Assembly: GCA_001683985.1 (NCBI GenBank) | Contig: MAEO01000116.1 | Coordinates: forward strand, 1-32,074 | Origin: Smithella sp. M82 | GTDB lineage: Bacteria > Desulfobacterota > Syntrophia > Syntrophales > Smithellaceae | Length of the DNA stretch: 32,074 bases | Reading direction: 5' to 3' | Part shown: piece by piece, positions 8,832-32,074 of the stretch | Position numbering within the stretch: the first letter of the stretch is position 1 | How the letters are laid out: each line of letters starts with the position of its first letter | Translations under genes and position numbers: made by a program | The notes under the pieces: generated by a model | The model's input: only the letters and a program-made list of their open reading frames with translations | The model's database searches: none | What the model was told of the DNA's origin: nothing

Positions 8832-8839
8832 GAAAAATA

Positions 8840-10777: not shown

Positions 10778-10832
10778 AGTCCATTTCTTTAAAAGAAGAA
10801 TTTAGATGATAACGCATTTACAGTCGCGAACT

Positions 10833-10859: not shown

Positions 10860-10882
10860 CCGGCAAAAAGGAAAAATATAAT

Positions 10883-10928: not shown

Positions 10929-10955
10929 TATATAAGTTCTTGATATAAGTAAAGT

Positions 10956-13197: not shown

Positions 13198-13215
13198 AAT
13201 CCAGAGACGAAAATT

Positions 13216-14469: not shown

Positions 14470-14615
14470 CTCTAAATACTCTCCTTGTATTTGTATTATT
14501 TTCTTCTTTTAAAGCCGGGTTATCAGACGGGCTTTGAAGAAGTAATTTTTCAATCACGCTGTTGATATTTTTATCTCGAAAACAGCGTTGACATTGTTAA
14601 ACGATTGCAAAAAAT

Positions 14616-15101: not shown

Positions 15102-15143
15102 GCCCAGCCAATAAATTCTTTCCTTTATCTTCCTTTTATCCAT
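15081..15143 (-). pseudogene. Stump of a leftward gene: strong ribosome site and first codons only
   Basis: On the minus strand an AAAAGGAGG site lies six bases before ATG 15143. The frame reads [14 protein letters not shown], then runs into the sigma-54 remnant and stops after 20 codons. It starts 23 bases after the nodT-like stop, so it was probably the next gene of the efflux operon before its body was lost at the junction near 15100. Product unknown. Confidence 0.5.
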
Positions 15144-15166
15144 AAAAATACCTCCTTTTGATAATA

Positions 15167-16636: not shown

Positions 16637-16686
16637 AAAAAGTTCCCTTTTTATTGACACGTGCAGGGGATGGATCGGTTCGCAGA

Positions 16687-17397: not shown

Positions 17398-17398
17398 A

Positions 17399-18604
17399 TC
17401 AGCCTCCTATAGCCTCGGCCGGATCGACCTTGAGGGCGGCGCGAATGGCGATGATGCTCGATAATATGCAGATCACAACGACGGCGACGAACCCGCGTAC
17501 GGAATCGAGTGGTTCGAGCAACACATATTTGGGAAAAATCGGCGCCATCAACAGGGTAGCGGTGATCTTGCCCACCACGAAGCCGATCATACCCAGAGCG
17601 ATGGCCTGTTGCATGATCATGGCGGCAATGGTCCGGTTGCGAGTGCCGATCAACTTGAGCACCGCGATTTCACGGATCTTGCCGAGGGTCAAGGTGTAGA
17701 TGATGAAGGCGACAATGGCCGCGCTGACAATCGATAGGATTACCAGGAACATGGCGATCTGTTTTGCCGACGTGGCGATTAGCTTGCCGAGGAGGATATC
17801 CTCCATCTGGCTGCGGGTGTAGACCGTCAATCGCTTCCAGCGGCGGATCGATTCGGCCACCCCGTCCGCGTCATGACCCTCTTCAATCTGTACCAGAACT
17901 GCGTTGACGTAAGGGTTGGTGCTTTGCGAAGCGATGACGGAATCGACTAAACCCGGAACCTGTGGTCGATTAAACGCCGGGTTTGCGGCGGTGCGGCGAC
18001 GCTGCTGTCGGATGGCGTCGTTGTCCTTGAGAAACTGGGCTTCCTGGGCATCCTTGAGCGGGATAAATATCATTGGATCGCCGCCGGAAGAAACCATCCG
18101 CCGGGTCAGGCCAACCACGGTGTACCCGTTGCGGCGGATCCGGAGGCGGTCGCCGAGCTTGAAGCCGCCGGCGATGTCGGCCACCGCCTCGTAATGGCCA
18201 CGGGTAATGTGGCGCCCGGCGACGAGATACGGCGGCCAGCCGGGTGTGCCAGGTCCGCCGGCGGTGATGCCTGTGACCATCGTCCGCACGTCGCGGTCAC
18301 CATGACGCACCTGCATGGTGAGATATGTAATGTTGGCTGTCCGCGCCACCCCCGGCATGCTGCGAATGCCGCGCCAGCTATCGTCGTAGATACTTGAAGG
18401 CTCGGCATAGGGGCCGAGGGTCTCCTTTTGCACCACCCAAATATCGGCGCCGCTGTTGTCGAGCAATGCCTTGCCGTCATCCACCATCCCGCGGTAGATG
18501 CCGGCCATGGAGAGCGTCACGCCGATCAACAGCCCAAGACCAACGCCGGTAAAAACGAACTTTCCCCAGGCGTGCATGATGTCGCGACCGGCCAGACTGA
18601 TCAT
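17399..18604 (-). CDS. FtsX-type ABC permease (DevC-like)
   Basis: The 401-residue inner-membrane protein has the MacB/FtsX layout: one N-terminal helix (FVFTGVGLGLLIGVTLSMAG, about 17-36), a large periplasmic domain (about 40-265), and three C-terminal helices (about 280-305, 325-350, 365-390) ending DPAEAIGG, the usual cytoplasmic tail. Its ATG overlaps the HlyD stop by four bases, and the ATPase ATG follows one base after its stop. These tight links mean a single exporter complex made in step. MacB-type permeases act as mechanotransmitters driving an adaptor and outer-membrane channel. Confidence 0.9.
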   Translation of the reverse strand: MISLAGRDIMHAWGKFVFTGVGLGLLIGVTLSMAGIYRGMVDDGKALLDNSGADIWVVQKETLGPYAEPSSIYDDSWRGIRSMPGVARTANITYLTMQVRHGDRDVRTMVTGITAGGPGTPGWPPYLVAGRHITRGHYEAVADIAGGFKLGDRLRIRRNGYTVVGLTRRMVSSGGDPMIFIPLKDAQEAQFLKDNDAIRQQRRRTAANPAFNRPQVPGLVDSVIASQSTNPYVNAVLVQIEEGHDADGVAESIRRWKRLTVYTRSQMEDILLGKLIATSAKQIAMFLVILSIVSAAIVAFIIYTLTLGKIREIAVLKLIGTRNRTIAAMIMQQAIALGMIGFVVGKITATLLMAPIFPKYVLLEPLDSVRGFVAVVVICILSSIIAIRAALKVDPAEAIGG

Positions 18605-19752
18605 CGCTTGACTCCCGGAATTTGTTCGACCACTTGAATGCGGCTGCTCGCATTCAATGCTTTTGCGCTATAGACGATCACATGATCGCCGACCTTCAGC
18701 CCTTCACGGACCTGTACCCGACCATCCAAATCGGCGGTACCCAAAATGACCGGCGTAAAGTGCAAGTCGCCATTTTTTACCTGCCACACGCCCAATTTGC
18801 CGTCGATGCGCTGGATGGCCGCATTGGGGATGACCGGTCCGGCCGGAAGCGCGGGTAGAACAACAGTGACCTCGGCCAATTCACCGATGGGCGGCAACGG
18901 TTCGGGCAGTTGGCCGAATACCACTTTGGCCAGCGCTTCCTCGGTTACTGCGTCGGCCAATGGCTCTACCCACAACACACGACCGTTCTCCAATTCGCCC
19001 GCTTGCGAACGTAATACGATCTGGGCCGGCAGATTAGGGGCAAGCCCACGCGCATGGATTTGATCGAAGCGTACATTGACCCACAAACTCTCAGGGTCGA
19101 TCAACTCCACCACCGCCTGGCCTGCTACAATCGTGGTACCCGGATCGGCATCGCGCGCAACGACCAGGCCAGCAACTGGAGCGATCAGCCGCAAATTGCT
19201 GTGCTGCGCAACCAAGGCCTCGCGTTCGGTCCGGATGCGGGCGATTTCCTCGCGCGCTGCGTTCAGACCCGCCTCGGCGACCTGCAGCTCGTGTCGTTTG
19301 GTAGCGTCCACCTCCTCACTGGTTGAGCGCACTTCCAACAACTGCTCGTAACGCCGTGCTTGTATTAGCGCATAGTTTTGGCGTGCCTGTGCCTCGTCTA
19401 ATTGTGCTTTTGCCCGTTTCACGGCGGCGTCTTGGGCGCGGATGCGTTCGTCAAGATCAACCGGGTCCATTTCGCCAAGCGCCTGCCCCGCTTTGACCCG
19501 ATCTCCCACATGGACGTCCAGTCTTTTGACACGTCCGGCGAAGGTTGGACCGATTTTGTAGGTGTATCGAGCCTCGACAGTGCCGATGCCGAATAGCGCG
19601 GGTGAAATGGATGTGTTCTCCACGGCAGCCAAGGTCACGGTCACTGGTGCAAGCGGCCCGGAGCGCAGGGCAACATAGACAAAAAGCACCAGCAGCGGGA
19701 TGAGTACCGCAAGTATGGCCAGGGTGCTCTTTTGTACAGGCAGCTTTTTCAT
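18601..19752 (-). CDS. HlyD/MacA-type periplasmic adaptor
   Basis: About 383 residues from ATG 19752, preceded by a GGAGGCG site; the longer start at 19788 lies inside the upstream small ORF. One N-terminal anchor helix (about 10-30). Then a lipoyl/barrel-sandwich half, YKIGPTFAGRVKRLDVHVGD, with RVKAGQALGEMDPVDL. A long alpha-hairpin of about 100 residues follows, then the second lipoyl half LRLIAPVAGLVVARDADPGT and beta-barrel segments. It bridges the FtsX-type permease and the outer-membrane channel. The ATG overlaps the stop of the 42-codon ORF (ATGA), tying the exporter to the restriction operon upstream. Confidence 0.9.
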   Translation of the reverse strand: MKKLPVQKSTLAILAVLIPLLVLFVYVALRSGPLAPVTVTLAAVENTSISPALFGIGTVEARYTYKIGPTFAGRVKRLDVHVGDRVKAGQALGEMDPVDLDERIRAQDAAVKRAKAQLDEAQARQNYALIQARRYEQLLEVRSTSEEVDATKRHELQVAEAGLNAAREEIARIRTEREALVAQHSNLRLIAPVAGLVVARDADPGTTIVAGQAVVELIDPESLWVNVRFDQIHARGLAPNLPAQIVLRSQAGELENGRVLWVEPLADAVTEEALAKVVFGQLPEPLPPIGELAEVTVVLPALPAGPVIPNAAIQRIDGKLGVWQVKNGDLHFTPVILGTADLDGRVQVREGLKVGDHVIVYSAKALNASSRIQVVEQIPGVKR

Positions 19753-19877
19753 GACGCCTCCCTGATCTCTCGTTGATAGCGGAACCATCCCTTGACCTGG
19801 GGATCACGCAGGTCCGGGTTGCCCTGGATAAACGCTCGGGTATCGTTGAAAAACCGTGCTATTTCTTCATTTGTCAT
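19749..19877 (-). CDS. 42-codon ORF linking hsdR and the efflux genes; possible helicase N-terminal stump
   Basis: The ATG at 19877 lies inside the last codons of hsdR (overlap of 11 bases in another frame), and the TGA overlaps the hlyD ATG. The peptide begins MTNEEIARFFNDTRAFIQ and continues PDLRDPQVKGWFRYQREIR. The LRDPQ-x-x-x-W/Y-F-Y pattern resembles the Q-motif region just before Walker A in some SF2 DEAD/DEAH helicases found in defence loci, but no Walker A follows. It may be a truncated helicase gene whose body was replaced by hlyD, or a genuine small coupling ORF. I do not recognise it with confidence. Confidence 0.45.
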   Translation of the reverse strand: MTNEEIARFFNDTRAFIQGNPDLRDPQVKGWFRYQREIREAS

Positions 19878-22800
19878 TTGCGGCTGCGGCCTCCTCCCTG
19901 ATCTTCTCGTAGACCTCCTTGAGGAGGTGTTGGCTGACAGCATCCCGGAATTGATCCTCGTTCATGAATTTTGCCGTGATCTCCTCGTTCTGCTCCATGC
20001 GGTCGATAAACAGGCCCTCCAAGGCTTTGCGGAAGACATAGCCGAAGTTCTCCATTGTGTTGGCGAGCGCGGCTTGACGGAGGCTGCTGTCGGCCACGGC
20101 GTCCTCGCGTATCGATTCGAAAAACAATTGGTCACCCGGCTTGAACTCGGTTCCGAACCGCTCGTTGAGAAGGTCGATGAGCCTGGACAGATCGATCTCA
20201 TCACCTCGGGCCACGCCGGTGCCCACAGACGTCGGCCCCGATACCTCGTATCGGGCTTCCGGATCCATGATGATGGAGCCCTCACCGATCTTCTGTAATC
20301 GGTAAAACTTGAGCGCCACGTCATCATTAAAGTTGTAGATCGGTCCCCGGTTATCTCTCGGCAGTTTGGTAAGCAGAAATCGGACGTAGGAGTACAGCTT
20401 CTCCAAATCGGAGTCCTGGAAGGGGATCACCTGCGACATGAAAGAATAGAGGTTTCTGAAAGCGGCCAGCGTCTCCCGGAACTCCTCCCGGACATCTTCC
20501 TCAAGTCCGTTGTAACGATTCACGGCCGGATCAATGCATGCGTTCATCCTGGCGTGGTCGGCGGGTGTTTGATTCTGTCGTGGTTTGTAGAATACCTTGC
20601 AGAACTCCTCGACCTCGGCCTTGTAGTAGACCTGGTGTCCGTCCAATTTGGCCTGAAGCTCGTAAAGCTGCTTCGGTTCCGCCCTTTCGCCGATGATCGT
20701 TTGCTCGTAGTAGGGCTGGAAGGCCTTCAGTATCTCTTCGGGTTCGTTGACGAAGTCGAGAACAAAGGTATCTTCCTTGCCCGGATGGGTGCGGTTAAGC
20801 CGCGAGAGGGTCTGGACCGCCTGGATTCCTGCGAGTCTCTTATCCACGTACATGGTGTGAAGAAGCGGCTGGTCGAATCCGGTCTGGTATTTCTCCGCCA
20901 CGAGCAACACCTGGTACTCTTCTGTCCCGAAGCGTTCCGGGAGTTCCTTTTCCCGGATGCCTTTGTTCATACCGACTTCCGTATATTCGACGCCGGGCGC
21001 ATCCGGATCGATCACCGTGCCGGAAAAGGCAACCAGCGTCTTGATTCCCGTGTACCCCTTTTCGGCGATGTACTTATCGAATGCCTGCTTGTACTTCACC
21101 GCATGCAATCGGCTGGAGGTGACCACCATCGCCTTGGCCTTTCCGCCGATCTTGTGCATGGTGAAGTGGCGGAAATGCTCGACCATGACCTCGGTCTTCT
21201 GGGCGATGTTGTGCGGGTGGAGACTCATGAAGCGGGCGAGCGCCCTTGCAGCCTTGCGCTTGTCCACCTTGGGATCGTCCTCGATGGACTTGATCAGCCG
21301 GTAATACGTCTTGTAGGTCGTGTAATTCTGGAGCACGTCGAGGATGAATCCCTCGTCGATGGCCTGACGCATGCTGTAGAGATGAAAGGGTTGCGGCTTG
21401 CCATCCGCGCCGGGTGTGCCGAAGACCTCCAGCGTTTTGTATTTGGGTGTCGCGGTGAAGGCGAAGAAGCTGATATTGGGCTGGCGGCCGCGCTTGGCCA
21501 TGGTCCTGAGGATTTCCTCTTCGTAGTCGGGCAGCCCTTCTTGCTCGGCTTTTGCTCGGGCTTCTTCTTTGATTGCCGCTCCGGCCAGCACACCCTTAAG
21601 TTCGGTCGCTGTCTCGCCGCCCTGCGAACTGTGCGCCTCATCAACCACCACCGCGTATCGGCGCATGGGCAAATCGCCCATCTTCCCGGTGACAAAGGGG
21701 AATTTCTGGAGCGTGGTGATCACGACCGGCACGCCAGACCCGAGGGCCTCGGCCAACTGGGTCGAGTTGATGTCGATCTTCTGGACCACGCCCTGCTTGT
21801 GCTCGAACTGGTAGATGGTGTTCTGGAGCTGCTGGTCGAGGACTACCCGGTCAGTAACCACGATGATCGAGTCGAAGACCTTCTCGTCCTTTGCGGTGTA
21901 GAGACTGGCGAGCCGATGGGCCAGCCAGGCGATGGAGTTGGATTTGCCGCTGCCGGCGGAGTGCTGGACAAGGTAATTGGTCCCGGCCCCCCGCACGCGG
22001 GCGTCCGCCACGAGTTTCCGCACGCAATCGAGCTGGTGATAGCGCGGGAAAATCATCGTCTCCCGCTTCACCTTCCTGCCGCCGGGCTGCTTCTCCTCGA
22101 CCTGGAGATGAATGAACCTTGCCAGGATGTCGAGGAAGCTGTGCCGTTCCAGGACCTCTTCCCAGAGGTAGGCGGTTTTGTAGCCGCCGGGGTTTTCCGG
22201 ATTGCCTGCGCCGCCTCCGCAGCCCTTGTTGAAGGGCAGAAAGAGTGTGCTCTTTCCCGAAAGACGCGTGGCCATGTAAACTTCGTCCGTGTCCACGGCG
22301 AAATGGACCAGCGTGCGCCGCTTGAACTGGAAGATCGGGTCTGAAGGATCGCGGTCATTCTTGTATTGGGTGATCGCATGCCGCCAGGTCTGGGCGGTCA
22401 TGGGGTTCTTGAGCTCCAGCGTGGAGACGGGGATGCCATTCAGGGCCAAGGTTACATCGAGGGTATTGCCGTGCCTGGCCGAATAGCGAAGCTGACGGGT
22501 CACCGTGAGTCGATTGGCCGCATAGAGCTTCTGAGTATCCGGGTTCATTCCGCTCGCCGGGGCGAAGTAGGCCACCCGAAACAGCTTTCCAAAGCATTTG
22601 AATCCGTGTCGCAGCACAGAGAGACACCCTTCGTGGCCGGAATTAAGCGCCCGGCAGAGGTTATCCAGCAGAGTTTCTTCGGCCTTATCCTTTTGGAGCC
22701 TGGCGAGGTATTCCCATTCCTTGGGTTGAGTTGCCTGGATGAACGCGATTACCTCGGCGGGGAACAGGGCGCGGGCCGGATCAAACGTTTCCCGGTCGCC

Positions 22801-22878
22801 TTTCACGTACCCGCCCGTCGTGGTCAGGTGGTGTTCGATGGCGGTCTCAAAGGCGTATTCTGTGTGTTGGCCCGGCAT
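19867..22878 (-). CDS. hsdR: Type I restriction enzyme R subunit
   Basis: The 1003-residue motor-nuclease has all expected parts. The PD-(D/E)XK nuclease is formed by D141 and E155-L-K157 in STLELKNPM, followed by QYKND (the QxxxY motif). SF2 translocase motifs follow: Walker A HSAGSGKS (306-313), DEAH (413-416), FFAFTATPKYKT (motif III), then VVTSSRLHAVKY, LLVAEKYQTGFDQP and QTLSRLNRTHPGK (motifs IV-VI). It translocates DNA and cuts distant unmethylated DNA with HsdM and HsdS. A GAGGAG site overlaps the protease stop one base upstream. Residues are intact, so activity is expected. It lies separated from hsdS by the ATPase-protease pair. Confidence 0.96.
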   Translation of the reverse strand: MPGQHTEYAFETAIEHHLTTTGGYVKGDRETFDPARALFPAEVIAFIQATQPKEWEYLARLQKDKAEETLLDNLCRALNSGHEGCLSVLRHGFKCFGKLFRVAYFAPASGMNPDTQKLYAANRLTVTRQLRYSARHGNTLDVTLALNGIPVSTLELKNPMTAQTWRHAITQYKNDRDPSDPIFQFKRRTLVHFAVDTDEVYMATRLSGKSTLFLPFNKGCGGGAGNPENPGGYKTAYLWEEVLERHSFLDILARFIHLQVEEKQPGGRKVKRETMIFPRYHQLDCVRKLVADARVRGAGTNYLVQHSAGSGKSNSIAWLAHRLASLYTAKDEKVFDSIIVVTDRVVLDQQLQNTIYQFEHKQGVVQKIDINSTQLAEALGSGVPVVITTLQKFPFVTGKMGDLPMRRYAVVVDEAHSSQGGETATELKGVLAGAAIKEEARAKAEQEGLPDYEEEILRTMAKRGRQPNISFFAFTATPKYKTLEVFGTPGADGKPQPFHLYSMRQAIDEGFILDVLQNYTTYKTYYRLIKSIEDDPKVDKRKAARALARFMSLHPHNIAQKTEVMVEHFRHFTMHKIGGKAKAMVVTSSRLHAVKYKQAFDKYIAEKGYTGIKTLVAFSGTVIDPDAPGVEYTEVGMNKGIREKELPERFGTEEYQVLLVAEKYQTGFDQPLLHTMYVDKRLAGIQAVQTLSRLNRTHPGKEDTFVLDFVNEPEEILKAFQPYYEQTIIGERAEPKQLYELQAKLDGHQVYYKAEVEEFCKVFYKPRQNQTPADHARMNACIDPAVNRYNGLEEDVREEFRETLAAFRNLYSFMSQVIPFQDSDLEKLYSYVRFLLTKLPRDNRGPIYNFNDDVALKFYRLQKIGEGSIIMDPEARYEVSGPTSVGTGVARGDEIDLSRLIDLLNERFGTEFKPGDQLFFESIREDAVADSSLRQAALANTMENFGYVFRKALEGLFIDRMEQNEEITAKFMNEDQFRDAVSQHLLKEVYEKIREEAAAANDK

Positions 22879-22879
22879 A

Positions 22880-25462
22880 TTATGTCGCTCCTCTTCTATG
22901 AATCGGCACCCGAATGCGGAGCCTGTCTCTCACTTCCTGATAGATCGGAATGGCGATTCCCTCTGCAACCTCCAATGTCACCGCCAAACCATAGCGTATA
23001 GGCTCAGGGATGTCTCCGGCATCAGCGCGACAGTTCACCTTGATTCCGATTGTTTCCCCATCCTGGAAGTCCACGGCCTCTGCGCTTTCCAGCACCTCGT
23101 GCTGAACGGTCCCCCGCTGTACCGCATTATGATCCGCACAGACACGGTCCGTTGCGAGATAGTTTTTCGGATTGAACCATAAATGAGCGATCCGGTAATT
23201 CTGACGAATGCAGTTCACCGGGGTGACCCAGGCAAGCGTGATTGTGAGACGACGTTTGTCGGTAACAGCTGAAAGGCTTGGTGGAAGTGGAAAAAGAAAC
23301 TCCTGACCCTCTCCATCCCCAAGCTTACCCATCCCCAAGACAGTAACGCGTTGGTCTGTGCAGGCAATCACCTTCGTCATATCGGCAGCCCCATATCCGA
23401 AAAATCGCCCGACATAGTCCCTGAAGACCCGACTGTTCCGAGGATTTTTCAAAATCGATTCGTAAAGCGGTCCTCCATTTCCCCAGTCCGCTCCATGGAC
23501 AAGAAGCGTCTTTAGAAGGACCACATCATACTCTGGTGACAGGCTCGCTCCAGGCTGCTCACGAAGCTGGCTTATGAGGTCCAATAAGGTAATTGCCCAA
23601 CGTGAGGCCAGCGCTGCCGAATTGCTTGTGCCCCTGGTGTGGAAGGTCAGGTTCAATTCACCCGCCGCCCCTGGGGCGGCAACCCGCTGTCCTGGGGGAC
23701 GAGTAAAATTCGGGGTCTGCAGGACAGCTTTTGTATGAACATTCCCAATTTTCTCGGAGAGGAACTGCCTGCCGCCGGGAAGGAGGATATCCGGTTTGAT
23801 GGTCCGTCGGTACCCCGGCCCCTGAGCGCTGATCGTGCTTGGAAGCCCCGTACGCGCAAAAGGATCGAGCAGGTTGGGATTGGTTCCGGAGGCAGAGGCG
23901 TCCGCATGGGTGGCCGCTACCGTAATGCCGTTAAATGTCTCAGCGGGTGATAGCAGGCGGCGATGTCTTGTGTCCGCCGCTATGGCCTCAATCACGGCCT
24001 TTTCCCGATCTTCCGCGCTCAAATTCCGAAGGTCAGCCCTTGGAACGTTTAACTCAATGTCATGGGGATGATTGCCGGCGCTGACCACGAACAGCACGTT
24101 GTATTTCCAGGAGAGCCAGTCCAGCAATCGAGCCCAAGAACTTATCACGCGATCAAAAGGTCTGGAACGATCACACACTGACAGGTTCACTACGCGTACA
24201 TTGGGAGCAACGGGCTGTTCTTCTCCTTCGGCTTCAAACAACCGCCGTACCGCGCGGTGTATCAGGTCCACCGCCAGGACTCCTTCTGGTATCCGTTCAA
24301 CAAATTGGCCATCGAAGCCGCGATAAGGTTGCAGGATCGGCCGGACATACACCGGCCTTCTCGACGGCCAGCCGCCTTCATCCAAGTCGCCATGGCAGAT
24401 GAGTGAGGCCATGGCGGTGCCGTGAACCCGTTCCCTCGCCTGGTAAGCGGTTCCGTACCCATCCGGATCGTCAACAATCAGTCTCCCATCAAGCAACCGG
24501 TGTCCTGTTAACGGATAGCCGTCAAACAAGGCAACGACCGGCACACCCCGTGGAAGGTCTGGTTGTTGTTGTCTGGAGATCTCCAAGCCCGACAAATCCT
24601 CCTGTACGCGGATCGCGCATTGTCCGACAGGTCGGAGATGCATAATATCCTCGCACTGGAAGAGGTGAAAATTATGCAATTCGGATAAGTCGGATAGCAG
24701 GCCGGTTAGCGCGTCAGATGGAATTCTACCCAGAACGCCGTGGTAGGCAATTGGGGGAATAACACATTGTTGGATAATTTCACCACCCAGAGAAGCAACC
24801 ACATTCCCAAGATAGGCTTCCGCTTGGCGTTGGCGGCCAGGATTTTCTCGAAACCATAATTCCACTTCAAAGGGGACAACTCCCAGACCATGCCCGACCC
24901 TGTCCTGCCAATCCGGAATGAGACCGGTATCGCGAATTCGGTCTTCGGCATCCCATGGTCGGATGGTACGGAGATGGGCAAATGCCTGTTTGAGGGGTGC
25001 GAGGCCACGGGGGAACCTGACGTTTGGATTCTGTTGCCAGTTGTTGAAAAGGCCCTGCAATTCCTGAAGGGCGCGCTGATCCGTCATGACCAGAAAGAGT
25101 TGCCCTTTAAGAAGCTTCTGTGGGTCTTTTTCGTCTTCGAACCCATAGTCCGGAGCGATATCATCAATCTCGAATTCTCCGAGCCACTCCAGCCCAGGGA
25201 CTTTCTTAATTGCTTTGATAAAACCATCAACAGAACCGATGGTCTCCAGAACCAAGGCTTGTTCCGGCTGAAGGCCAAGTGAGTTGTTTTGCAGGGCGAG
25301 CCGTTGCCTGTCGATGGCCTGCTGAAGCCGCTGGAACTGCGGCGCAATCCGTTCCGCCTGTACTTGAGCGGCTGGAAGTCTAATTTTCCCGCGAGGTGGG
25401 GGGCGTTTTGCCCTTTCGGCAATCGTCGGAGTTGGAAAAATCAGGAGTGGGTATTCCGCCAT
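22880..25462 (-). CDS. ietS: Subtilisin-like serine protease, IetS-like
   Basis: The 860-residue S8 family protein has a complete triad: D314 in VVALFDGYPL, H347 in RVHGTAMASL, and S613 in HTRGTSNSAALAS; the oxyanion N464 is in VVSAGNHP. A 300-residue N-terminal region without recognised domains precedes the protease, and about 220 residues follow it. No signal peptide is visible (MAEYPLLIFP start), so it acts in the cytoplasm. The ATPase-S8 protease gene pair matches IetA/IetS, known from a Ti-plasmid stability locus and from anti-phage screens; the assignment is by architecture. Its ATG lies 3 bases after the ATPase stop, with GGAAGG inside the ATPase end. Confidence 0.8.
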   Translation of the reverse strand: MAEYPLLIFPTPTIAERAKRPPPRGKIRLPAAQVQAERIAPQFQRLQQAIDRQRLALQNNSLGLQPEQALVLETIGSVDGFIKAIKKVPGLEWLGEFEIDDIAPDYGFEDEKDPQKLLKGQLFLVMTDQRALQELQGLFNNWQQNPNVRFPRGLAPLKQAFAHLRTIRPWDAEDRIRDTGLIPDWQDRVGHGLGVVPFEVELWFRENPGRQRQAEAYLGNVVASLGGEIIQQCVIPPIAYHGVLGRIPSDALTGLLSDLSELHNFHLFQCEDIMHLRPVGQCAIRVQEDLSGLEISRQQQPDLPRGVPVVALFDGYPLTGHRLLDGRLIVDDPDGYGTAYQARERVHGTAMASLICHGDLDEGGWPSRRPVYVRPILQPYRGFDGQFVERIPEGVLAVDLIHRAVRRLFEAEGEEQPVAPNVRVVNLSVCDRSRPFDRVISSWARLLDWLSWKYNVLFVVSAGNHPHDIELNVPRADLRNLSAEDREKAVIEAIAADTRHRRLLSPAETFNGITVAATHADASASGTNPNLLDPFARTGLPSTISAQGPGYRRTIKPDILLPGGRQFLSEKIGNVHTKAVLQTPNFTRPPGQRVAAPGAAGELNLTFHTRGTSNSAALASRWAITLLDLISQLREQPGASLSPEYDVVLLKTLLVHGADWGNGGPLYESILKNPRNSRVFRDYVGRFFGYGAADMTKVIACTDQRVTVLGMGKLGDGEGQEFLFPLPPSLSAVTDKRRLTITLAWVTPVNCIRQNYRIAHLWFNPKNYLATDRVCADHNAVQRGTVQHEVLESAEAVDFQDGETIGIKVNCRADAGDIPEPIRYGLAVTLEVAEGIAIPIYQEVRDRLRIRVPIHRRGAT

Positions 25463-25465
25463 GAT

Positions 25466-26464
25466 TTATTCATCCTTCCCGTCAGCATTTGGATTCGCTT
25501 GAGTGAACCGTTTCTTCCATTGAGCCAAGCAGTGTTCTGTGATTTGTTTTGGATTCGCATCAAGCTGGCTCAACGCGATTCGCCGGAGCACATCGCTTCC
25601 GAAATCCTCGATCTCAGCAAAACTCAAACCCTTCAAACTCTGGGCCATACTGCGGGGCAAGACGCCCAATGAGTGCCCGCTTCGCGTTTCGAACCGCCGG
25701 AACCATTCCTCGATTTGGCCTTGCTTCGGCATTGGCAGTTCCAGGCGCACTTGAAATCGCCGCCATACCGCGCGGTCGAGCAGTTCCGGATGGTTGCTAG
25801 CTGTCACGACAACCACATAACTCGGCAGGGCATCGATCTGTAACAACAGCGAGCTCACCACCCGCTTGATTTCTCCAGTTTCGTGGAGGTCGCCCCGTTC
25901 TTTTCCAATCGCGTCGAATTCATCGAAGAACAGCACGCATTGCCGCGAGCGAGCATACTCAAAGACCTGCTCGATCCGTTGCGCCGTTTCGCCGAGATAG
26001 CTTCCGATGATTGCCTCGTAGCGAACAATCAAGAACGGAGCATTCAGGGCGTCGGCAATCCCTTCAGCCAGCGATGTCTTGCCGTTTCCCGGCGGCCCCG
26101 CCAGGAGCACCCGGTGACGCGGCTCCAGGTTATGTGACCGCAGCAAATCGGCGCGGTGCTGCTCCTCCACCAATTCGCGAACAGCCTGTTCGGCTTCGGT
26201 AGGCAAAATCAGGTCTTCAATGCGTCGTCTGGGAACTACCTCGGCCACAAGCGACCCGGAAAGAGGGCGGATGGGCGGTGGCACGAGCGGCTTCGGCCGT
26301 CCGTTGTTGTCCTGCTGAAGCAGTGCAATAAGCCGGTCGGCCAGAATATCGTGATTCTTGGCCCGCTCATCGGCGGCCAATGCTTCCACGGTCTTCCGAA
26401 ACTGAGCCTGGTCGCCTCTGGTGCCCGCCCGTATCAAGTTCAGAATCAAGTCTGCTCGTGCCAT
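25466..26464 (-). CDS. ietA: AAA ATPase, IetA-like
   Basis: A 332-residue single-domain AAA protein. Walker A LAGPPGNGKTS (121-131), Walker B VLFFDEFDAIG (177-187), sensor-1 VVVTASNHP (218-226, N224), and an arginine-finger region DRAVWRRF (230-237). It resembles classical AAA (katanin/FtsH-like core) without substrate-binding partners. A helical N-terminal part (about 1-70) precedes it, and the C-terminal lid ends VLRRIALSQLD. Partner is the adjacent S8 protease, so it may unfold or gate substrates or regulate the protease. The start lies 5 bases after hsdS with an AGGA ribosome site. Confidence 0.82.
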   Translation of the reverse strand: MARADLILNLIRAGTRGDQAQFRKTVEALAADERAKNHDILADRLIALLQQDNNGRPKPLVPPPIRPLSGSLVAEVVPRRRIEDLILPTEAEQAVRELVEEQHRADLLRSHNLEPRHRVLLAGPPGNGKTSLAEGIADALNAPFLIVRYEAIIGSYLGETAQRIEQVFEYARSRQCVLFFDEFDAIGKERGDLHETGEIKRVVSSLLLQIDALPSYVVVVTASNHPELLDRAVWRRFQVRLELPMPKQGQIEEWFRRFETRSGHSLGVLPRSMAQSLKGLSFAEIEDFGSDVLRRIALSQLDANPKQITEHCLAQWKKRFTQANPNADGKDE

Positions 26465-26469
26465 GGTCT

Positions 26470-27831
26470 TTATCCTCGCTTGAACTGCTTTGGTCGTTGC
26501 TCGATGCTGTCTCGCACGTCGATCTTACCGGTGACGGCAGCGGAGATCAGGGCGGTGCGGTATTCGCGGAGCAATTCAATGGATTTTTCCACCTTTTCGA
26601 TCAGCGCATCGATCCGCGCCGTCTCGCGGTCCAGGAACGCGGCGATGGTGAGCTGTTCTTCAAGGGGAGGAATAAGGAACAGTCCGTTGTCGAGCCAGTA
26701 GTTTCCAAGTCCATATCGAGTAATACCTGTCGATGCTACTTGAAACTGATGATTTATTGGCTTCGATGAAAAGGCTCTGAAAAGGTACTTGCATTCCATC
26801 AATCGTGTATTGGCGCGAATCTGGGCAAGGTGATAGCCACAAAGAACATCATCAAGCTTGTCCGACACATACGAGGGGACAGCGATGTCAGTCCATGATT
26901 CCGAATCTTTCGTGATGATAACGTCGCCGCGCCGAACTCTGAACTTCCTAATTTCTCCTTTCGTAGCCGTTGCAGACATGAAAGGAAGGTCGCCCGTTAT
27001 GAAATCGTTATTGTAAACATCTACATAGTTACAAAGCCGAACGGTTTCTTCGCCTTCTACAGAGTTTTTGTCCACGTTGCTGAATTGGACCGATGCAATA
27101 TACTTCAATTTTAGGACTTCCCAATGCTCCGGTATCTCCCCCAGCCATTCGATACCCGAATCCTTCATCTTGGCATTGGGGTCGAGCCCTTTGGTGACAG
27201 CGTGGCTGATGAGGGCGGAGCGCTTCTCCTGGAGCAACTCGATCTGCCGTCGCTTCTTTTCGATCAGAGCATCGATCCGTGTCGTCTCGCGGTCCAGAAA
27301 GGCGGCAATGGCGCGCTGCTCGGTGAGCGGAGGGATAGGGACCGTCATATCTGCGACTTCGTCTGCAGACACTGCTTCATAAGTGGACCCAGTGGCAATG
27401 CACCACAGTTCGTGCCTTGTGACCGTAAGAGTGTGCCAAGCAAAGCGGCTTATCAATAAGCTTTGATCCGGAATCACAGCACATAGACCACGTCCGATCC
27501 CATAGCAACGATCCGCCATATTCAGAGTGCCTACCGGTGCTCTAACGGAAACAAGTAGTGAACCTGCTGGCGCTGTTTTCGTCGCCGTTTCGCAATAGTA
27601 TTTCGCCGTTGGGTTCTCGACCCCAAATTCAGCGTTCCCCTGCAAGAACGGCCTGTCTGACTCTTCGAATGTGTAATCGTCAGAATTGGGAGACTGGCCC
27701 ATGACTGTATTGGCGACAAATTTCAATCGCTTAACCTCCCAATGCTCCGGTATCTCCCCCAGCCATTCAATGCCCGATGGCCTGTACACCGGGTAGGCCG
27801 CTCGTTTGTGTTGAGTTGCTGGCCGGCTCAT
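26470..27831 (-). CDS. hsdS: Type I restriction-modification specificity subunit
   Basis: The 453-residue protein has two target-recognition domains (about 15-150 and 226-380), each opening SGIEWLGEIPEHWEV, and two coiled-coil spacers (about 177-215, DRETTRIDALIEKKRRQIEL; and about 400-440, DRETARIDALIEKVEKSIEL). The repeats define half-sites and fix the spacing of the bipartite DNA target. The duplicated ends are nearly identical in DNA, so recombination can swap domains. The start overlaps the YhcG-type nuclease stop by four bases. Specificity cannot be read from sequence. Confidence 0.94.
   Translation of the reverse strand: MSRPATQHKRAAYPVYRPSGIEWLGEIPEHWEVKRLKFVANTVMGQSPNSDDYTFEESDRPFLQGNAEFGVENPTAKYYCETATKTAPAGSLLVSVRAPVGTLNMADRCYGIGRGLCAVIPDQSLLISRFAWHTLTVTRHELWCIATGSTYEAVSADEVADMTVPIPPLTEQRAIAAFLDRETTRIDALIEKKRRQIELLQEKRSALISHAVTKGLDPNAKMKDSGIEWLGEIPEHWEVLKLKYIASVQFSNVDKNSVEGEETVRLCNYVDVYNNDFITGDLPFMSATATKGEIRKFRVRRGDVIITKDSESWTDIAVPSYVSDKLDDVLCGYHLAQIRANTRLMECKYLFRAFSSKPINHQFQVASTGITRYGLGNYWLDNGLFLIPPLEEQLTIAAFLDRETARIDALIEKVEKSIELLREYRTALISAAVTGKIDVRDSIEQRPKQFKRG
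27119..27159 (-). repeat. HsdS internal DNA repeat, second-domain copy
   Basis: About 41 bases encoding GIEWLGEIPEHWEV. It matches 27737-27777 with about two differences, well beyond protein-level conservation at a repeated motif. Confidence 0.8.
27737..27777 (-). repeat. HsdS internal DNA repeat, first-domain copy
   Basis: Partner of 27119-27159, direct orientation, about 620 bases away. Recombination between them would delete or exchange one target-recognition domain. Confidence 0.8.
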
Positions 27832-29024
27832 GGTTTGCCCCCTTTGCCAGGCCCTTTCTTCTCGTCTTCATTCTGGCTCTTCGTGGGCTGCTTGACCGTT
27901 CGCGAGCCCGCCGGGTGAACCGTCAAGTTTTTCTTGACGGTTGTTTTTGTGGTTGCCTCGCCTGCGTCATCGCCCCGATTCTCGATGGCCAATCGGGAAC
28001 GCTCGATGGCCTCATGCAGCTTGCGTTTCAAAATATCCTTGGGCGGCAGGACGGTCAGGTACTCGGCGACATGGATGCCGGAGCGGCCCAGCTCAAGCAG
28101 TTCGATTTGTTCGCTGTTCTTCCCGGCGCAAAGGATGATGCCCAGGGGTGAATCTTCTCCCGGCTTGCGCTCGTGCCGGTCAAGCCAGCGCAGGTAAAGC
28201 TCCATCTGTCCCTTGTGATCGGGCCGGAACTTGTCGAGTTTGAGCTCCACTGCCACCAGACGCCGCAGATCGCGATGGAAAAAGAGCAGGTCCAGATAAA
28301 AATCATCATGATCCACGGTGATGCGTTTCTGCCGGGCGACGAAGGTGAAGCCTGCGCCCAACTCCATGATGAAGGCTTCCAACTCGCGGAGAATGGCCGC
28401 CTCCAGGTCTTTTTCCTGGTAAGCGCCTTTCAAGCCGAGAAAGTCGAGGAGGTACGGGTCGCGGAACACCAGGTCGGGCGTTATTCGATCCTCTTCCCGC
28501 AAGGCCTGAAGTTCAAGCTTTGCCAACTCCGCCGGTTTCTTAGAGAGGGCCGTCCTCTCGTACAGCATAGAGGCGATTTTCTTTTGGAGCGTGCGGGTGC
28601 TCCACCGTTCGACGCGGCACATCTCGGCGTAGAAGTCACGCTGAAGAACCTCCGGCAGGTAGATGATGGCGAGGAAATGGGTCCAGCTCAATTGTCTCAG
28701 CAGCGCCGAGACAATCCTGTCATCGGGAAACGCTTCAACGAAGCGGATCATGTGGCGCAGACTCTTTTCGGAAAATCCCCGCCCGTACTCGCTCGTCAAT
28801 TGTCTCGCCAGAGCTGAGACAATCTCCGCGCCATACTCCGCCCGCTCTCCCTTGAGTATCTCCTGGCTGATCCGCCTGCCGATTCGCCAATAAAGCATGG
28901 TCAACCCGGCATTCACCGTGGCGGCCACTGAAGCCCGGGCTTCCTCGATCATTTGGCGGATGTCACCGAGCAATTGATCGGGGAATAAAGCCTTATCGGA
29001 GGGTTTCATCGGCTTTTCGCTCAT
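27828..29024 (-). CDS. YhcG/DUF1016-type PD-(D/E)XK nuclease
   Basis: A 398-residue protein with the DUF1016 N-terminal domain (about 20-150; LYWRIGRRISQEI, GRGFSEKSLRHMIRFVEAFP, LSWTHFLAI) and a C-terminal PD-(D/E)XK domain (about 190-345). Nuclease residues are E214 or nearby in LRELEAF, D245 in YLDLLFFH, and E260-L-K262 in VAVELKLDKF, followed by GQMELYLRWL. Such proteins occur singly or in type I restriction loci; nuclease activity is inferred from the complete motif. It sits between hsdM and hsdS with four-base ATGA overlaps on both sides. An acidic/basic, Lys-rich tail (TTKTTVKKN onward, about 350-398) is not part of the usual domain. Confidence 0.92.
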   Translation of the reverse strand: MSEKPMKPSDKALFPDQLLGDIRQMIEEARASVAATVNAGLTMLYWRIGRRISQEILKGERAEYGAEIVSALARQLTSEYGRGFSEKSLRHMIRFVEAFPDDRIVSALLRQLSWTHFLAIIYLPEVLQRDFYAEMCRVERWSTRTLQKKIASMLYERTALSKKPAELAKLELQALREEDRITPDLVFRDPYLLDFLGLKGAYQEKDLEAAILRELEAFIMELGAGFTFVARQKRITVDHDDFYLDLLFFHRDLRRLVAVELKLDKFRPDHKGQMELYLRWLDRHERKPGEDSPLGIILCAGKNSEQIELLELGRSGIHVAEYLTVLPPKDILKRKLHEAIERSRLAIENRGDDAGEATTKTTVKKNLTVHPAGSRTVKQPTKSQNEDEKKGPGKGGKP

Positions 29025-31033
29025 TCCGTTACCTTCGCAAGCATATCCGCAATTTCCTTTTCGATCTTCTTGAGGTCAACCTCAATCTCCGCAAGCGGCC
29101 TCGGCGGGTTGTACTGGTAGAAGTATCGGTTGAGATTGATCTCATAGCCGATCTTGGTCTTGGATTCGTCGACCCAGGCGTCGGGCACGTGCGGCAGCGC
29201 CTCGCGCTTCATGTATTCGTCCACGTCCTCCTTGAGCGGCACGTTCTCGTAGTCACGCAGCTCTGGATCAGGTTCCGGCTTGCCCCTGGCGTCGGTGCAG
29301 ATGTCCGCCGTTTCGTCCCGTTCCGCCAGGGCCATGAGGAGGGCCTTGAAGAGTGCGGCCGGGACATTGAAGCCCGCCTTCTTGAGCGCCGTCTTCATCA
29401 TCTCCGAGAATTGATCGCGGTTCTTGACGATGCCTTTACCGGCAAGCGGCCGCAGGGCGGACAGGATGGCTTCCTGCAGCTTGCGGCCTTCTTCGATCTC
29501 GGCCTGAGCGGCTTTTGTATCCTTGCGCTTTTTGCCGGCGGCAAGGTTGGCGAAGGCCGTTGTCTCCTTGAGGCGGGCGATTCGAGCCTCGTCCACCGCG
29601 AAGTTGAGCCGCAGAGGACGTTCTACTGTGATGCGCCGGTAGCCGAAGTCGGCGTTGTCGAAAATGCGGACGTGATCCGCATCTTCCAAATTCCCATAGA
29701 GCCGGGTGATCTCGTCGCGCTGATCGTCGCAGACCTCGTTGCGCTTATTGCCGAGGGACTTGCGCATCTTTTTGAAGAAGGTCGTTCCGTCCACCAGTTG
29801 AATCTTGCCCCTGCGCCCCGGCTTCTTCCGATTGGTGACGATCCAAAGGTAGGTGTAGATGCCGGTATTATAGAAGAGCTGGTCCGGCAGTGCGACAATG
29901 GCCTCCAGCCAATCGTTCTCGATAATCCAGCGGCGGATCTCGCTCTCTCCCGACCCGGCCGCGCCAGTGAACAGCGGCGAACCGTTAAAGACAATTCCGA
30001 GGCGGGTGCCGCCCTCCTTCGGGTCCTTCATCTTGCTGATCATGTGCATGAGAAAGAGAAGGGAGCCGTCATTGATGCGGGGCAGTCCCGCGCCGAAACG
30101 GCCTCCGAAGCCCTGTTCTTCATGTTCGCGCGTGATGAAGTCGGCTTCCGGCTTCCATTCCACACCGAAGGGCGGATTGGCCAGCATGTAATCAAACTTG
30201 TGGCGAGGGAAGCGGTCATCCGTGAAACTGTCGCCAAAAGCGATGTGCTCGATATCCTGCCCCTTGATCATCATGTCAGAGCCGCAGATGGCGTAAGCCT
30301 GGGCGTTGTAGTCCTGTCCGAAGACCTCCAGGCGGGCGTCGGGATTGAGCTCGCGCACGTAGTCCTCAGCCACCGAGAGCATGCCGCCCGTTCCGCAGGC
30401 CGGGTCGTAGAGGGTCTTGACAATTCCTTTGGTAGTGAGGATGTCACCATCCGGCAAAAAGAGGAGGTTCACCATCAGGCGAATGACCTCGCGGGGGGTG
30501 AAGTGATCGCCGGCCTCTTCGTTCGATGCCTCATTAAATCGCCGGATCAGCTCTTCGAAGATGTAGCCCATCTCGATGTTCGAGACGGCATGCGGGTGCA
30601 GGTCGATGTCGCAGAACCTGGACACTACCAGATAGAGCCGGTCGGCCTTGTCGAGCTTGGCGATGTGTTCCTCGAATCCGAAGTGCTCGATGATCTCTCG
30701 GGCGCGCGAGGAGAACCCTTTGATATAGTTGGTCAGATTTGCGGCAATGTTGTCCGGGTCGCCTTTGAGCTTTTGGAACGAGTACCGGCTGGTGTTGTAA
30801 AAAGGCACTCCCGTGACACGGCAGAGAATGGGATCGACGTTTTTAACCTTGCCGCCCGAGAGTTTCTTCTGCTGTTCGAGAACCTTATCCTTGGTGGGCG
30901 AAAGCACGCAGTCGAGACGGCGAAGAACGGTCATGGGGAGCATGACGTCCTTGTACTGGTTTGGCCGGTAGGGTCCGCGAATGAGGTCGGCAACCGACCA
31001 AATGAAACTTACTTTTTCGCCGAAATTGTTCAT
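29021..31033 (-). CDS. hsdM: Type I restriction-modification methyltransferase subunit
   Basis: A 670-residue N6-adenine methyltransferase. HsdM N-terminal domain (about 8-140), then EAGDHFTPREVIRLMV, motif I DPACGTGGML (210-219), GQDYNAQAYAIC and motif IV NPPF (286-289). The later blocks LFLMHMISKMK and IVALPDQLFYNTGIYTYLWI are also typical. It binds SAM and methylates one base in each half-site with HsdS. At 670 residues it is longer than E. coli HsdM (about 530); the extra part lies after residue 500, with a coiled-coil-like tail. The stop overlaps the nuclease ATG. The start is 8 bases after the regulator stop. Confidence 0.95.
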   Translation of the reverse strand: MNNFGEKVSFIWSVADLIRGPYRPNQYKDVMLPMTVLRRLDCVLSPTKDKVLEQQKKLSGGKVKNVDPILCRVTGVPFYNTSRYSFQKLKGDPDNIAANLTNYIKGFSSRAREIIEHFGFEEHIAKLDKADRLYLVVSRFCDIDLHPHAVSNIEMGYIFEELIRRFNEASNEEAGDHFTPREVIRLMVNLLFLPDGDILTTKGIVKTLYDPACGTGGMLSVAEDYVRELNPDARLEVFGQDYNAQAYAICGSDMMIKGQDIEHIAFGDSFTDDRFPRHKFDYMLANPPFGVEWKPEADFITREHEEQGFGGRFGAGLPRINDGSLLFLMHMISKMKDPKEGGTRLGIVFNGSPLFTGAAGSGESEIRRWIIENDWLEAIVALPDQLFYNTGIYTYLWIVTNRKKPGRRGKIQLVDGTTFFKKMRKSLGNKRNEVCDDQRDEITRLYGNLEDADHVRIFDNADFGYRRITVERPLRLNFAVDEARIARLKETTAFANLAAGKKRKDTKAAQAEIEEGRKLQEAILSALRPLAGKGIVKNRDQFSEMMKTALKKAGFNVPAALFKALLMALAERDETADICTDARGKPEPDPELRDYENVPLKEDVDEYMKREALPHVPDAWVDESKTKIGYEINLNRYFYQYNPPRPLAEIEVDLKKIEKEIADMLAKVTE

Positions 31034-31041
31034 GGCCGCTC

Positions 31042-31299
31042 CTAATCCTGATCCGAGCCCAGGTCCGCGAAATCAATCATGTCGGCAGACAGTGTCAACT
31101 TGCCCTGACCGGTCATCTTCTTACAGAAGGCTTTCAGTTGGGCCTTGGCGAGCTTGGAGGGCTTAGACAACCCGTTTTCCCATCGGTTGACGGTCGCGTA
31201 GCTGACGCCGAGCTGCCTGGCCAGGTCTTCCTGGCTCAGGGAAAGCTGACGTCGCATCTCTTTTACCAGCGCCGAAAGACTTCGACCCTCTGTGTCCAT
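31042..31299 (-). CDS. Xre-family transcriptional regulator (controller-like)
   Basis: From ATG 31299, preceded by a GAGGTG site six bases away, it encodes 85 residues; the upstream ATG at 31326 lacks a ribosome site. A helix-turn-helix covers about residues 15-60: LSQEDLARQLGVSYATVNRW then ENGLSKPSKLAKAQL. It is the first gene of the leftward operon, 8 bases before hsdM. Xre proteins in this position often auto-regulate restriction loci, so a control role is likely but inferred. The C-terminal 25 residues (LSADMIDFADLG) are family-unknown and acidic. Confidence 0.85.
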   Translation of the reverse strand: MDTEGRSLSALVKEMRRQLSLSQEDLARQLGVSYATVNRWENGLSKPSKLAKAQLKAFCKKMTGQGKLTLSADMIDFADLGSDQD

Positions 31300-31344
31300 T
31301 CGCTGCACCTCTTGTCTGGATGGCAAACCACGGCCCTTGACCGA

Positions 31345-31374
31345 ATATAATGGCGTATGTTATATCGTTCGCAA
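31345..31374 (-). promoter_or_regulatory. Promoter with overlapping palindromic operator before the Xre regulator
   Basis: Minus-strand TTGCGA (31369-31374) is spaced 18 bases from TTATAT (31345-31350). The region also holds an inverted repeat, atataa (31345-31350) and ttatat (31360-31365), nine bases apart. The palindrome covers the -10 and part of the spacer, the expected place for an autoregulator's operator. Confidence 0.45.
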
Positions 31375-31657
31375 GAGAAAAGCAAGGGAAATCCGCAGCC
31401 ATAATCCGCCACCTAATTTTGCACGGACTCGATTCCCCGTTTTTCAGCGTTGTTTGTTTGAGATGGCTACAAGATATTGCCCTCATTGAGTCGGGTCAGA
31501 TCAATTCTGCGCATGATTATCCCCTTCGAAAGCTCCTTAGCGCCAAAAATGGACAAGCCTCACCCTGAGCGTGAAAATTACCCTCGAAAATCCACCGCCA
31601 AGGGGCATTCGCCCCTCTGCGTCTGCAATTCCCCGATGGGGCCGAAACAAGCCCCAT
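31375..31657. other. Non-coding stretch upstream of the restriction operon
   Basis: GC drops compared with the operon. Frames are short and unrecognised. The right part (about 31540-31657) adjoins the transposase remnant and may be old IS end sequence. Confidence 0.45.
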
Positions 31658-31833
31658 GATCCGGCTTCTGGCCTCAAGAAAGAGGGCATATGTCTGGCGG
31701 TCTTTCACAAGGCGAATGATCAATTCACGAGAGCGTTCGACAATCCGTCCGGGGATGTTGATGAGCGAAAACCGAATCGCCTTTCTCCTGTTCGTACTTG
31801 AATGATAGAAGACCTTGTGCCATAATAGTTTCC
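31658..31833 (-). pseudogene. C-terminal remnant of an IS1380/IS4-like transposase
   Basis: The minus strand reads LLWHKVFYHSSTNRRKAIRF then SLINIPGRIVERSRELIIRL and ALFLEARSRI. IS1380-family transposases end with a similar pattern: a basic KTIR-F stretch, IAGRVVRHARRIILKL, then a final helix before the stop. The body of the transposase with the DDE residues is absent. Its upstream side abuts a dispersed repeat at 31834, so the repeat either inserted into the IS or brought it to the island edge. The in-frame MHFQ start at 31846 derives from that repeat and is not the original N-terminus. Confidence 0.5.
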
Positions 31834-32012
31834 TCTGAAAATGCACCTCTAAGTTATTGTTTATATTGTTATTTAAAAACTATCCTCATCAAATCCCCCT
31901 CCATCCCCCTTTTCTCAAGGGGGAAGTTCCCCTCTTGGGCAAAGAGGGCAGGGCTTGAGTTCCCCCTTTTCTCAAGGGGGAAGTTCCCCATCAATCCCCC
32001 CTTTTCTCAACT
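31834..32012. repeat. Long dispersed repeat, right copy
   Basis: Bases 31834-31908 are identical to 5962-6036. The following hairpin units match the left copy in kind but have ctcaagg in place of ctaaagg and one unit fewer. It is in the same orientation as the left copy, about 26 kb away, and truncated at 32009-32012 by unrelated sequence. Confidence 0.85.
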
Positions 32013-32074
32013 AACTATGTCCCATATCTTTTTGCTGGACACAGGGGGGAATTAATGATATCGTGTCCGCATGA
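32013..32074. other. Window end, possible start of another element
   Basis: The sequence carries tgtcccatatct and tggacacag, an imperfect tgtcc/ggaca inverted pair, followed by gtgtccgcatga. It may be the edge of an insertion sequence, but the window ends here and no gene can be assigned. Confidence 0.3.

What the first reader, a model, noticed from the sequence alone, without database searches (positions are those of the whole stretch)
22880..26464. ATPase-protease pair (IetA/IetS-like) embedded between hsdS and hsdR of a type I restriction system
The sequence shows a complete S8 protease with D/H/S triad and an intact AAA ATPase placed within an hsdM-hsdS-hsdR operon, with gaps of 5, 3 and 1 bases. 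IetAS-type pairs are known as stand-alone stability or anti-phage modules. Here the module is inside the restriction operon, so protease, ATPase and restriction subunits should be made together. One possibility is a protease that is held inactive by or triggered through HsdR/HsdM activity; HsdR itself, normally controlled by ClpXP-type proteolysis, could also be its substrate. A named system with this exact order is not known to me.
Basis: partly seen in the sequence, partly recalled or inferred. Interest (0 to 1): 0.85.

Follow-up and report, generated by a model that had tools for sequence, protein, structure and literature searches.

The report
Protease defence pair inside restriction operon
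A two-gene bacterial defence module (a protein-unfolding ATPase plus a protease, called IetAS) sits inside the operon of a DNA-cutting restriction system, and relatives of the pair are repeatedly found inside such operons in distant bacteria, so it is not a one-off, although nobody yet knows what the protease cuts.

Summary
Observation confirmed. On the minus strand lie an HTH regulator, hsdM, yhcG (DUF1016 nuclease), hsdS, ietA, ietS and hsdR, with gaps of 5, 3 and 1 bases around the pair. PADLOC names the pair IetA (490 bits) and IetS (1056 bits, full length). Triad D314/H347/S613 and the Walker motifs are intact and invariant across relatives.

The insertion is not unique. In a draw of genomes from five phyla, chosen by IetS alone, 45 loci had readable flanks: 8 lie inside type I restriction operons (between hsdM and hsdS, or between hsdS and hsdR), 5 inside BREX, 2 inside type III restriction and 1 inside an Hma-like methylase operon; the rest are mostly stand-alone. 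IetS and HsdM/HsdR histories disagree, and the hsdS/hsdR slot of the same HsdR group holds Septu, RhuM-Fic, Schlafen or nothing elsewhere. IetAS is thus portable cargo of methylase-based defence operons.

Most likely function: a co-expressed second defence layer, an ATPase-fed protease. The idea that it acts on HsdR is weakened by its presence in BREX, type III and alone; a PrrC-like guard role stays open. Embedding is a known theme; IetAS as its cargo was not found in papers searched.

The parts
31042..31326 (-). small HTH_3 (XRE-type) regulator gene directly upstream of hsdM (start codon uncertain)
   Evidence: Pfam HTH_3 46.5 bits; ends 8 bases before hsdM; homologue upstream of hsdM in L008
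29021..31033 (-). hsdM, type I methyltransferase subunit, 670 aa, with DPACGTGG and NPPF motifs
   Evidence: Pfam HsdM_N and N6_Mtase; PADLOC MTase_I 994 bits; motifs
27828..29024 (-). yhcG, DUF1016 N-terminal plus YhcG PDDEXK nuclease; PADLOC candidate PDC-S02; overlaps both neighbours by 4 bases
26470..27831 (-). hsdS specificity subunit with two target-recognition domains, 453 aa
   Evidence: Pfam Methylase_S, two stretches
25466..26464 (-). ietA, AAA ATPase, 332 aa; N-terminal helical domain (residues 4-50) plus classic-clade AAA module
   Evidence: PADLOC IetA PDLC04232 490 bits; AF2 model pLDDT 82; Foldseek matches to p97, FtsH and PAN AAA domains
26075..26098 (-). ietA Walker A, GPPGNGKT (residues 123-130)
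   Evidence: invariant glycines, K129 and T130
22880..25462 (-). ietS, S8 (subtilisin-like) protease, 860 aa: two N-terminal alpha/beta domains with the strand-helix order of ferredoxin-like folds, subtilisin domain, C-terminal beta domain
   Evidence: PADLOC IetS PDLC04233 1056 bits, residues 1-855; Pfam Peptidase_S8; AF2 pLDDT 87.5, pTM 0.90; KP-43 protease Z 25.8
24521..24523 (-). catalytic Asp314 codon of ietS
   Evidence: invariant in alignment
24422..24424 (-). catalytic His347 codon of ietS (HGT)
   Evidence: invariant in alignment
23624..23626 (-). catalytic Ser613 codon of ietS (GTS)
   Evidence: invariant in alignment
19867..22878 (-). hsdR, type I restriction subunit, 1003 aa; Shine-Dalgarno-like GAGGAG lies inside the 3' end of ietS
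   Evidence: Pfam HSDR_N and SWI2_SNF2; NCBIfam hsdR 196 bits; junction sequence

Best explanation
The pair is a member of the IetAS anti-phage family, carried as an embedded cargo module in the hsdS/hsdR slot of a mobile type I restriction operon. Shown by sequence: an intact protease and ATPase, same-strand spacing of 1-5 bases, separate Shine-Dalgarno-like sites, repeated independent occurrence inside methylase-based defence operons, and exchange between them. Inferred: the operon is read as one unit under the upstream HTH regulator. IetA forms an AAA ring that binds a phage-derived or infection-induced protein and unfolds it or uses it to switch on IetS. IetS is made as a latent subtilisin and then cuts cellular or phage proteins, stopping infection, possibly by abortive infection. 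This gives a second layer that still acts when a phage escapes restriction. Embedding mainly provides co-expression and co-transfer; it need not mean physical control by HsdR or HsdM.
For: Full-length PADLOC IetA and IetS matches. Invariant catalytic and Walker residues over 28-39 homologues. Recurrence: type I embedding in L002, L005, L006, L008+L014, L071, L074, L099, L106, L116, L117, L129 and L131; BREX in L062, L063, L065, L066 and L098; type III in L068 and L102. The type I label needs 9 changes on the IetS tree, 8 forced by strongly supported branches, so embedding changed repeatedly. Discordance: L002 and L005 have IetS 71-72% but HsdM 37-40% and HsdR 41-44%, and use the hsdM/hsdS slot; L116 and L117 have IetS 44-45% but HsdR 60-61% in the same slot as the window. 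The same slot in related HsdR systems holds Septu (L076), RhuM-Fic (L077), Schlafen-AlbA (L078), Septu plus IetAS stacked (L116), or nothing (L079-L083). Stand-alone copies on plasmids show that the pair does not need restriction genes nearby.
Against: No activity was measured here. NCBIfam equivalog cut-offs are not reached, so the characterised pair is distant. The mechanism of IetAS is stated as unknown in the papers read (PMC11878078, PMC9958689). Labels on the IetS tree are mildly clustered (type I: 11 of 500 shuffles as low; BREX: 1 of 500), so some lineages stay with one host system, which could mean functional dependence.
Confidence: 0.62

Rival explanations
1. Guard model, as for PrrC in EcoprrI: the IetAS protease is held latent by, or monitors, the modification/restriction complex and is released when a phage anti-restriction protein disables that complex.
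For: PrrC embedded in a type IC operon is sequestered in the enzyme and released by T4 Stp (PMC3874165, PMC12707154). IetAS recurs inside several methylase-based systems (type I, type III, BREX), next to methylase or translocase genes, and some IetS lineages keep one host type (BREX, 1 of 500 shuffles as low).
Against: Stand-alone copies exist on plasmids and chromosomes. Embedded IetS has no added domain. The partner enzymes (PglX, ModIII, HsdM/S/R) are unrelated enough that one shared binding mode is hard to picture. Two different slots are used.
Confidence: 0.2
2. Regulator model: IetAS proteolyses HsdR (or HsdM) to control restriction, replacing ClpXP in restriction alleviation.
For: ietS abuts or overlaps hsdR in operons that use the hsdS/hsdR slot (gap 1 in the window; overlaps of 26-29 bases in L099, L116, L117), and type I endonuclease control by ClpXP proteolysis is known (PMC12255303).
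Against: The same family sits in BREX and type III loci and alone, where there is no HsdR; the HsdR relatives inspected in the window's own lineage lack it (L076-L086).
Confidence: 0.06
3. Stability or hitchhiker model: the pair behaves as a plasmid- or island-stabilising addiction module that inserted into a hotspot by recombination without functional meaning.
For: Many homologues lie on plasmids (110 records); the hsdS/hsdR junction accepts many modules; PMC12255303 calls this site a potential recombination hotspot.
Against: Close spacing with start-stop overlaps and intact active sites argues for selection on joint expression; embedded in 16 of 45 readable loci.
Confidence: 0.12

Closest known systems
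IetAS (PADLOC IetA/IetS; NCBIfam IteA/IteS) anti-phage ATPase-protease pair
   Same: adjacent AAA ATPase and S8 protease genes, full-length PADLOC profile matches, conserved triad and Walker motifs
   Different: below NCBIfam equivalog cut-offs (70 of 900 and 223 of 510 bits); embedded in a type I operon instead of standing alone
EcoprrI/PrrC, anticodon nuclease embedded in a type IC restriction operon
   Different: two-gene ATPase-protease instead of a tRNA nuclease; no evidence here that it is held by the restriction enzyme
RRDM island (RptR, hsdM, hsdS, DarTG2, hsdR, M48) of enteropathogenic E. coli, PMC12255303
   Same: defence module in the hsdS/hsdR slot, small DNA-binding regulator at the head of the operon
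   Different: DarTG2 toxin-antitoxin instead of IetAS; relation of the HTH here to RptR not tested
Septu (PtuAB) embedded in type I or Hma loci
   Same: same slot in a related operon (L076), and stacked with IetAS in L116
   Different: ATPase-HNH nuclease, not a protease

Membership tests
IetAS anti-phage family | adjacent AAA ATPase (IetA) and S8 protease (IetS) genes | tested here: met
   gap of 3 bases
IetAS anti-phage family | full-length match to PADLOC IetA and IetS profiles | tested here: met
   IetS PDLC04233 1056 bits over 1-855; IetA PDLC04232 490 bits over 1-324
IetAS anti-phage family | intact protease triad and ATPase motifs | tested here: met
   D314, H347, S613, N464; K129, D181, E182 invariant
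NCBIfam equivalog of the characterised pair (IteA/IteS) | score above NCBIfam equivalog cut-off | tested here: not met
   IteS 70.1 of 900, IteA 223 of 510 bits: homologous, but not called equivalent
IetAS anti-phage family | protects against phage, dependent on both active sites | not testable with these tools
   needs plating assays
Type I restriction-modification | hsdM, hsdS and hsdR with catalytic motifs in one operon | tested here: met
PrrC-type RM-guard | effector gene embedded in a type I operon | tested here: met
PrrC-type RM-guard | latency through the restriction enzyme and release by an anti-restriction protein | not testable with these tools
   indirect argument against: stand-alone and non-type-I copies

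The most novel reading that the evidence does not exclude
IetAS is a general guard or partner of methylation-based defence (type I, type III, BREX, perhaps DISARM and Hma): it senses failure or inhibition of the modification/translocase complex and answers with proteolysis, a protease counterpart of PrrC that works with several unrelated host systems.
Probability: 0.2. Interest if true: 0.85.

Novelty: new member of a known kind. Interest (0 to 1): 0.48.

Why it matters
Embedding of one defence module in another is a known way to find new immunity genes (PrrC, DarTG2, Septu). Here a protease-based module of unknown mechanism is shown to be recurrent cargo of four kinds of methylase-bearing systems (type I, type III, BREX, Hma-like) in several phyla. 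This gives a concrete test set (same slot with IetAS, with Septu, or empty) for asking whether embedding means functional coupling or only co-expression and shared transfer, and it offers native operons in which the unknown trigger and substrate of IetAS can be sought.

Tried and rejected
HsdR-specific substrate: weakened, because the family occurs with BREX, type III and alone. A unique insertion: rejected. A dead or truncated protease: rejected by motifs and alignment. Separate expression: the promoter/terminator scan found nothing beyond shuffled expectation (6 against 4.5 promoters; 14 against 13.3 terminators), which is weak evidence either way. PDB search by sequence found no relative of IetS, so no solved homologue informs the mechanism. 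In the VIA-align rows the N-terminal 300 residues of IetS were barely tested by the fold search. Phage records held no relative of IetS. Literature: of the 19 papers that hold the word IetAS only three were opened (PMC9958689, PMC11878078, PMC12629846), plus five on restriction systems, embedding or defence genes; none of those read described IetAS inside an hsd operon. The guilt-by-embedding preprint (Payne et al. 2024, doi 10.1101/2024.01.29.577857) is not held and could not be checked.
Full report
What is there. The minus strand carries, in order of transcription, an HTH_3 regulator (31326-31042), hsdM (31033-29021), yhcG/DUF1016 (29024-27828), hsdS (27831-26470), ietA (26464-25466), ietS (25462-22880) and hsdR (22878-19867). 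Each of ietA, ietS and hsdR has a Shine-Dalgarno-like stretch just upstream (GAGG, AAGGA and GAGGAG), and the one for hsdR lies inside ietS. The promoter and terminator scan shows nothing above shuffled expectation inside the operon. One transcript is therefore likely but not shown.

Identity. Pfam and PADLOC agree: Peptidase_S8 and AAA, IetS PDLC04233 at 1056 bits over residues 1-855 and IetA PDLC04232 at 490 bits. NCBIfam's equivalog models for the characterised pair match far below their cut-offs, so this is a distant subtype. Catalytic D314, H347, S613 and oxyanion N464 are invariant in 39 aligned homologues; IetA K129, D181/E182, N224 and R235/R236 are invariant in 28. HsdM and HsdR keep their methylase, helicase and nuclease motifs, so the host system looks intact.

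Structure. AlphaFold2 gives IetS a confident model (pLDDT 87.5, pTM 0.90): an N-terminal part of about 290 residues whose strand and helix order (about 67-144 and 195-277) is that of two ferredoxin-like domains, a subtilisin domain, and a C-terminal beta domain. The nearest solved structures are the KP-43 and SubHal alkaline proteases (Z 25.8 and 25.7, rmsd 3.4 and 3.3, 384 and 385 aligned residues). Pro-Tk-subtilisin and ProN-Tk-SP also match, the latter from model residue 170 on (Z 23.0, rmsd 6.6, 448 aligned), which suggests that the second N-terminal domain corresponds to a subtilisin pro-domain; this is an inference and was not tested on the domain alone. No signal peptide is evident by eye, so the protease is probably cytoplasmic. 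IetA is a classic AAA module close to p97, FtsH and PAN behind a small helical N-terminal domain.

Is it recurrent? IetS homologues were collected with the IetS profile alone from even draws of Desulfobacterota (395 genomes; identified as the window's phylum because the draw around the Desulfosarcina locus L002 returned the same genomes), Chloroflexota (251), Acidobacteriota (247), Pseudomonadota (398) and Bacteroidota (296) (phylum names follow the record titles of the loci used as centres), and from a genome-contig scan biased to close relatives. Gene maps show 58 even-draw loci, 45 of them with at least 1.5 kb on both sides. Of these, 8 lie inside type I operons: five between hsdM and hsdS (L071, L074, L106, L129, L131; in L106 no hsdS was recognised, but hsdM precedes and hsdR follows) and three between hsdS and hsdR (L099, where hsdM was not found nearby and HsdR is 731 aa; L116; L117). 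Five lie between pglX and brxH in BREX loci (L062, L063, L065, L066, L098; PglXI 1289-1445 bits, BrxC 2181 bits). Two lie between mod and res of type III systems (L068, L102). One sits in an Hma-like methylase/helicase operon (L113). Two more abut BrxL (L067) or DrmMI/DrmD of DISARM (L104). The rest stand alone or have unidentified neighbours; the plasmid pairs inspected stand alone. From the biased scan, L006 (Nitrospinota) repeats the window's slot, and L002, L005 and L008+L014 use the hsdM/hsdS slot.

Chance. If a genome of about 4 Mb holds one or two type I operons of about 9 kb, random insertion would put about 0.3% of pairs inside one. Eight of 45 then has a probability near 1e-12, and about 4e-4 even if insertion were confined to defence islands at 4%. 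These base rates are my rough estimates, and L065/L066 are near-identical copies, so the effective number is somewhat lower.

Cargo or partner? On the IetS tree the type I label needs 9 changes, 8 of them forced by starred branches, so embedding was gained or lost repeatedly. L003 and L004 are scored as not embedded only because their contigs end near or inside ietA. Pairwise identities disagree between modules. L002 and L005 share 71-72% of IetS with the window but only 37-44% of HsdM/HsdR, and use another slot. L006 shares 86% of HsdM/HsdR but 68% of IetS. L116 and L117 share 60-61% of HsdR but 44-45% of IetS, in the same slot. In other operons of the same HsdR group the hsdS/hsdR slot holds Septu (L076), RhuM-Fic (L077), Schlafen-AlbA (L078), Septu and IetAS one after the other (L116), or nothing (L079-L083). 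This is what a cargo slot filled by exchangeable modules would look like. Mild clustering of labels on the tree (type I 11 of 500, BREX 1 of 500 shuffles as low) leaves room for some functional dependence.

How it probably works. The most economical reading is a second, co-expressed immune layer: an AAA ring (IetA) delivering a target to, or switching on, a latent subtilisin (IetS). The trigger and substrate are unknown; papers that mention IetAS state that its mechanism is unknown. A PrrC-type guard remains the main rival and would be the more exciting outcome.

Known context. One module embedded in another is an established theme: PrrC in EcoprrI (PMC3874165), DarTG2 between hsdS and hsdR with a small repressor at the operon head, the site being called a potential hotspot (PMC12255303), second defence systems including PrrC inside type I loci of Pseudomonas islands (PMC12629846), and the guilt-by-embedding preprint cited in PMC12988326. 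The yhcG gene in this operon is itself a PADLOC phage-defence candidate (PDC-S02). None of the papers read here describes IetAS inside an hsd operon, but subscription papers and bioRxiv were not searchable, and not every paper that names IetAS was opened.

Origin. The operon and the neighbouring efflux genes (15-32 kb) have G+C 0.56-0.59 against 0.41 for window positions 1-14500; sampled contigs of the genome range from 0.39 to 0.58, mostly 0.39-0.49. ietA and ietS (0.573, 0.55) match the operon. The island was probably acquired with the pair already inside, which fits the same layout in a different phylum (L006), or the contig is chimeric near 14.5-15 kb; neither affects the operon itself.

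Noticed in passing
window 14500-15170 and 15000-32074: G+C rises from about 0.41 to about 0.57 near 14.5-15 kb, beside a 181-aa sigma-54 activator fragment (14616-15161, + strand): an acquired island, or a chimeric contig.
   Followed up: partly
window 27828-29024: A second embedded candidate defence gene, yhcG/DUF1016 (PDC-S02), sits between hsdM and hsdS and overlaps both by 4 bases; YhcG also lies between hsdM and hsdS in L082, L083 and L071.
   Followed up: partly
window 31042-31326: A small HTH regulator just upstream of hsdM, with a homologue upstream of hsdM in L008; its position resembles that of RptR in the RRDM island.
   Followed up: partly
L116 4566-13575: Septu (PtuAB) and IetAS stacked one after the other in the same hsdS/hsdR slot: hsdM-hsdS-ptuA-ptuB-ietA-ietS-hsdR.
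   Followed up: yes
L076 9030-10918, L077 9395-10420, L078 9777-11450: The same slot of related type I operons holds Septu, a RhuM-Fic protein and a Schlafen-AlbA protein.
   Followed up: partly
L068 1984-10923, L102 1280-9507, L075: IetAS between mod and res of type III restriction systems (L075 is cut by its contig end).
   Followed up: partly
L113 502-16393, L114: IetAS upstream of an Hma-like methylase and helicase, preceded by 339- and 920-aa proteins without PADLOC matches.
   Followed up: partly
L010 10001-14751: Close stand-alone relative (65% IetS identity) whose ietS overlaps by 4 bases a 723-aa alpha/beta-hydrolase-type protein.
   Followed up: no
L110 411-4986: ietS overlaps a PifA-like gene (PADLOC PifA 263 bits) by 59 bases.
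   Followed up: no
L093, L097, L108, L122, L125: IetS reading frames split or shortened in several stand-alone loci.
   Followed up: no
window 15167-19788: Outer-membrane efflux protein, ABC ATPase, MacB/FtsX permease and HlyD-type fusion protein genes: a MacAB-like export operon directly downstream of hsdR.
   Followed up: no
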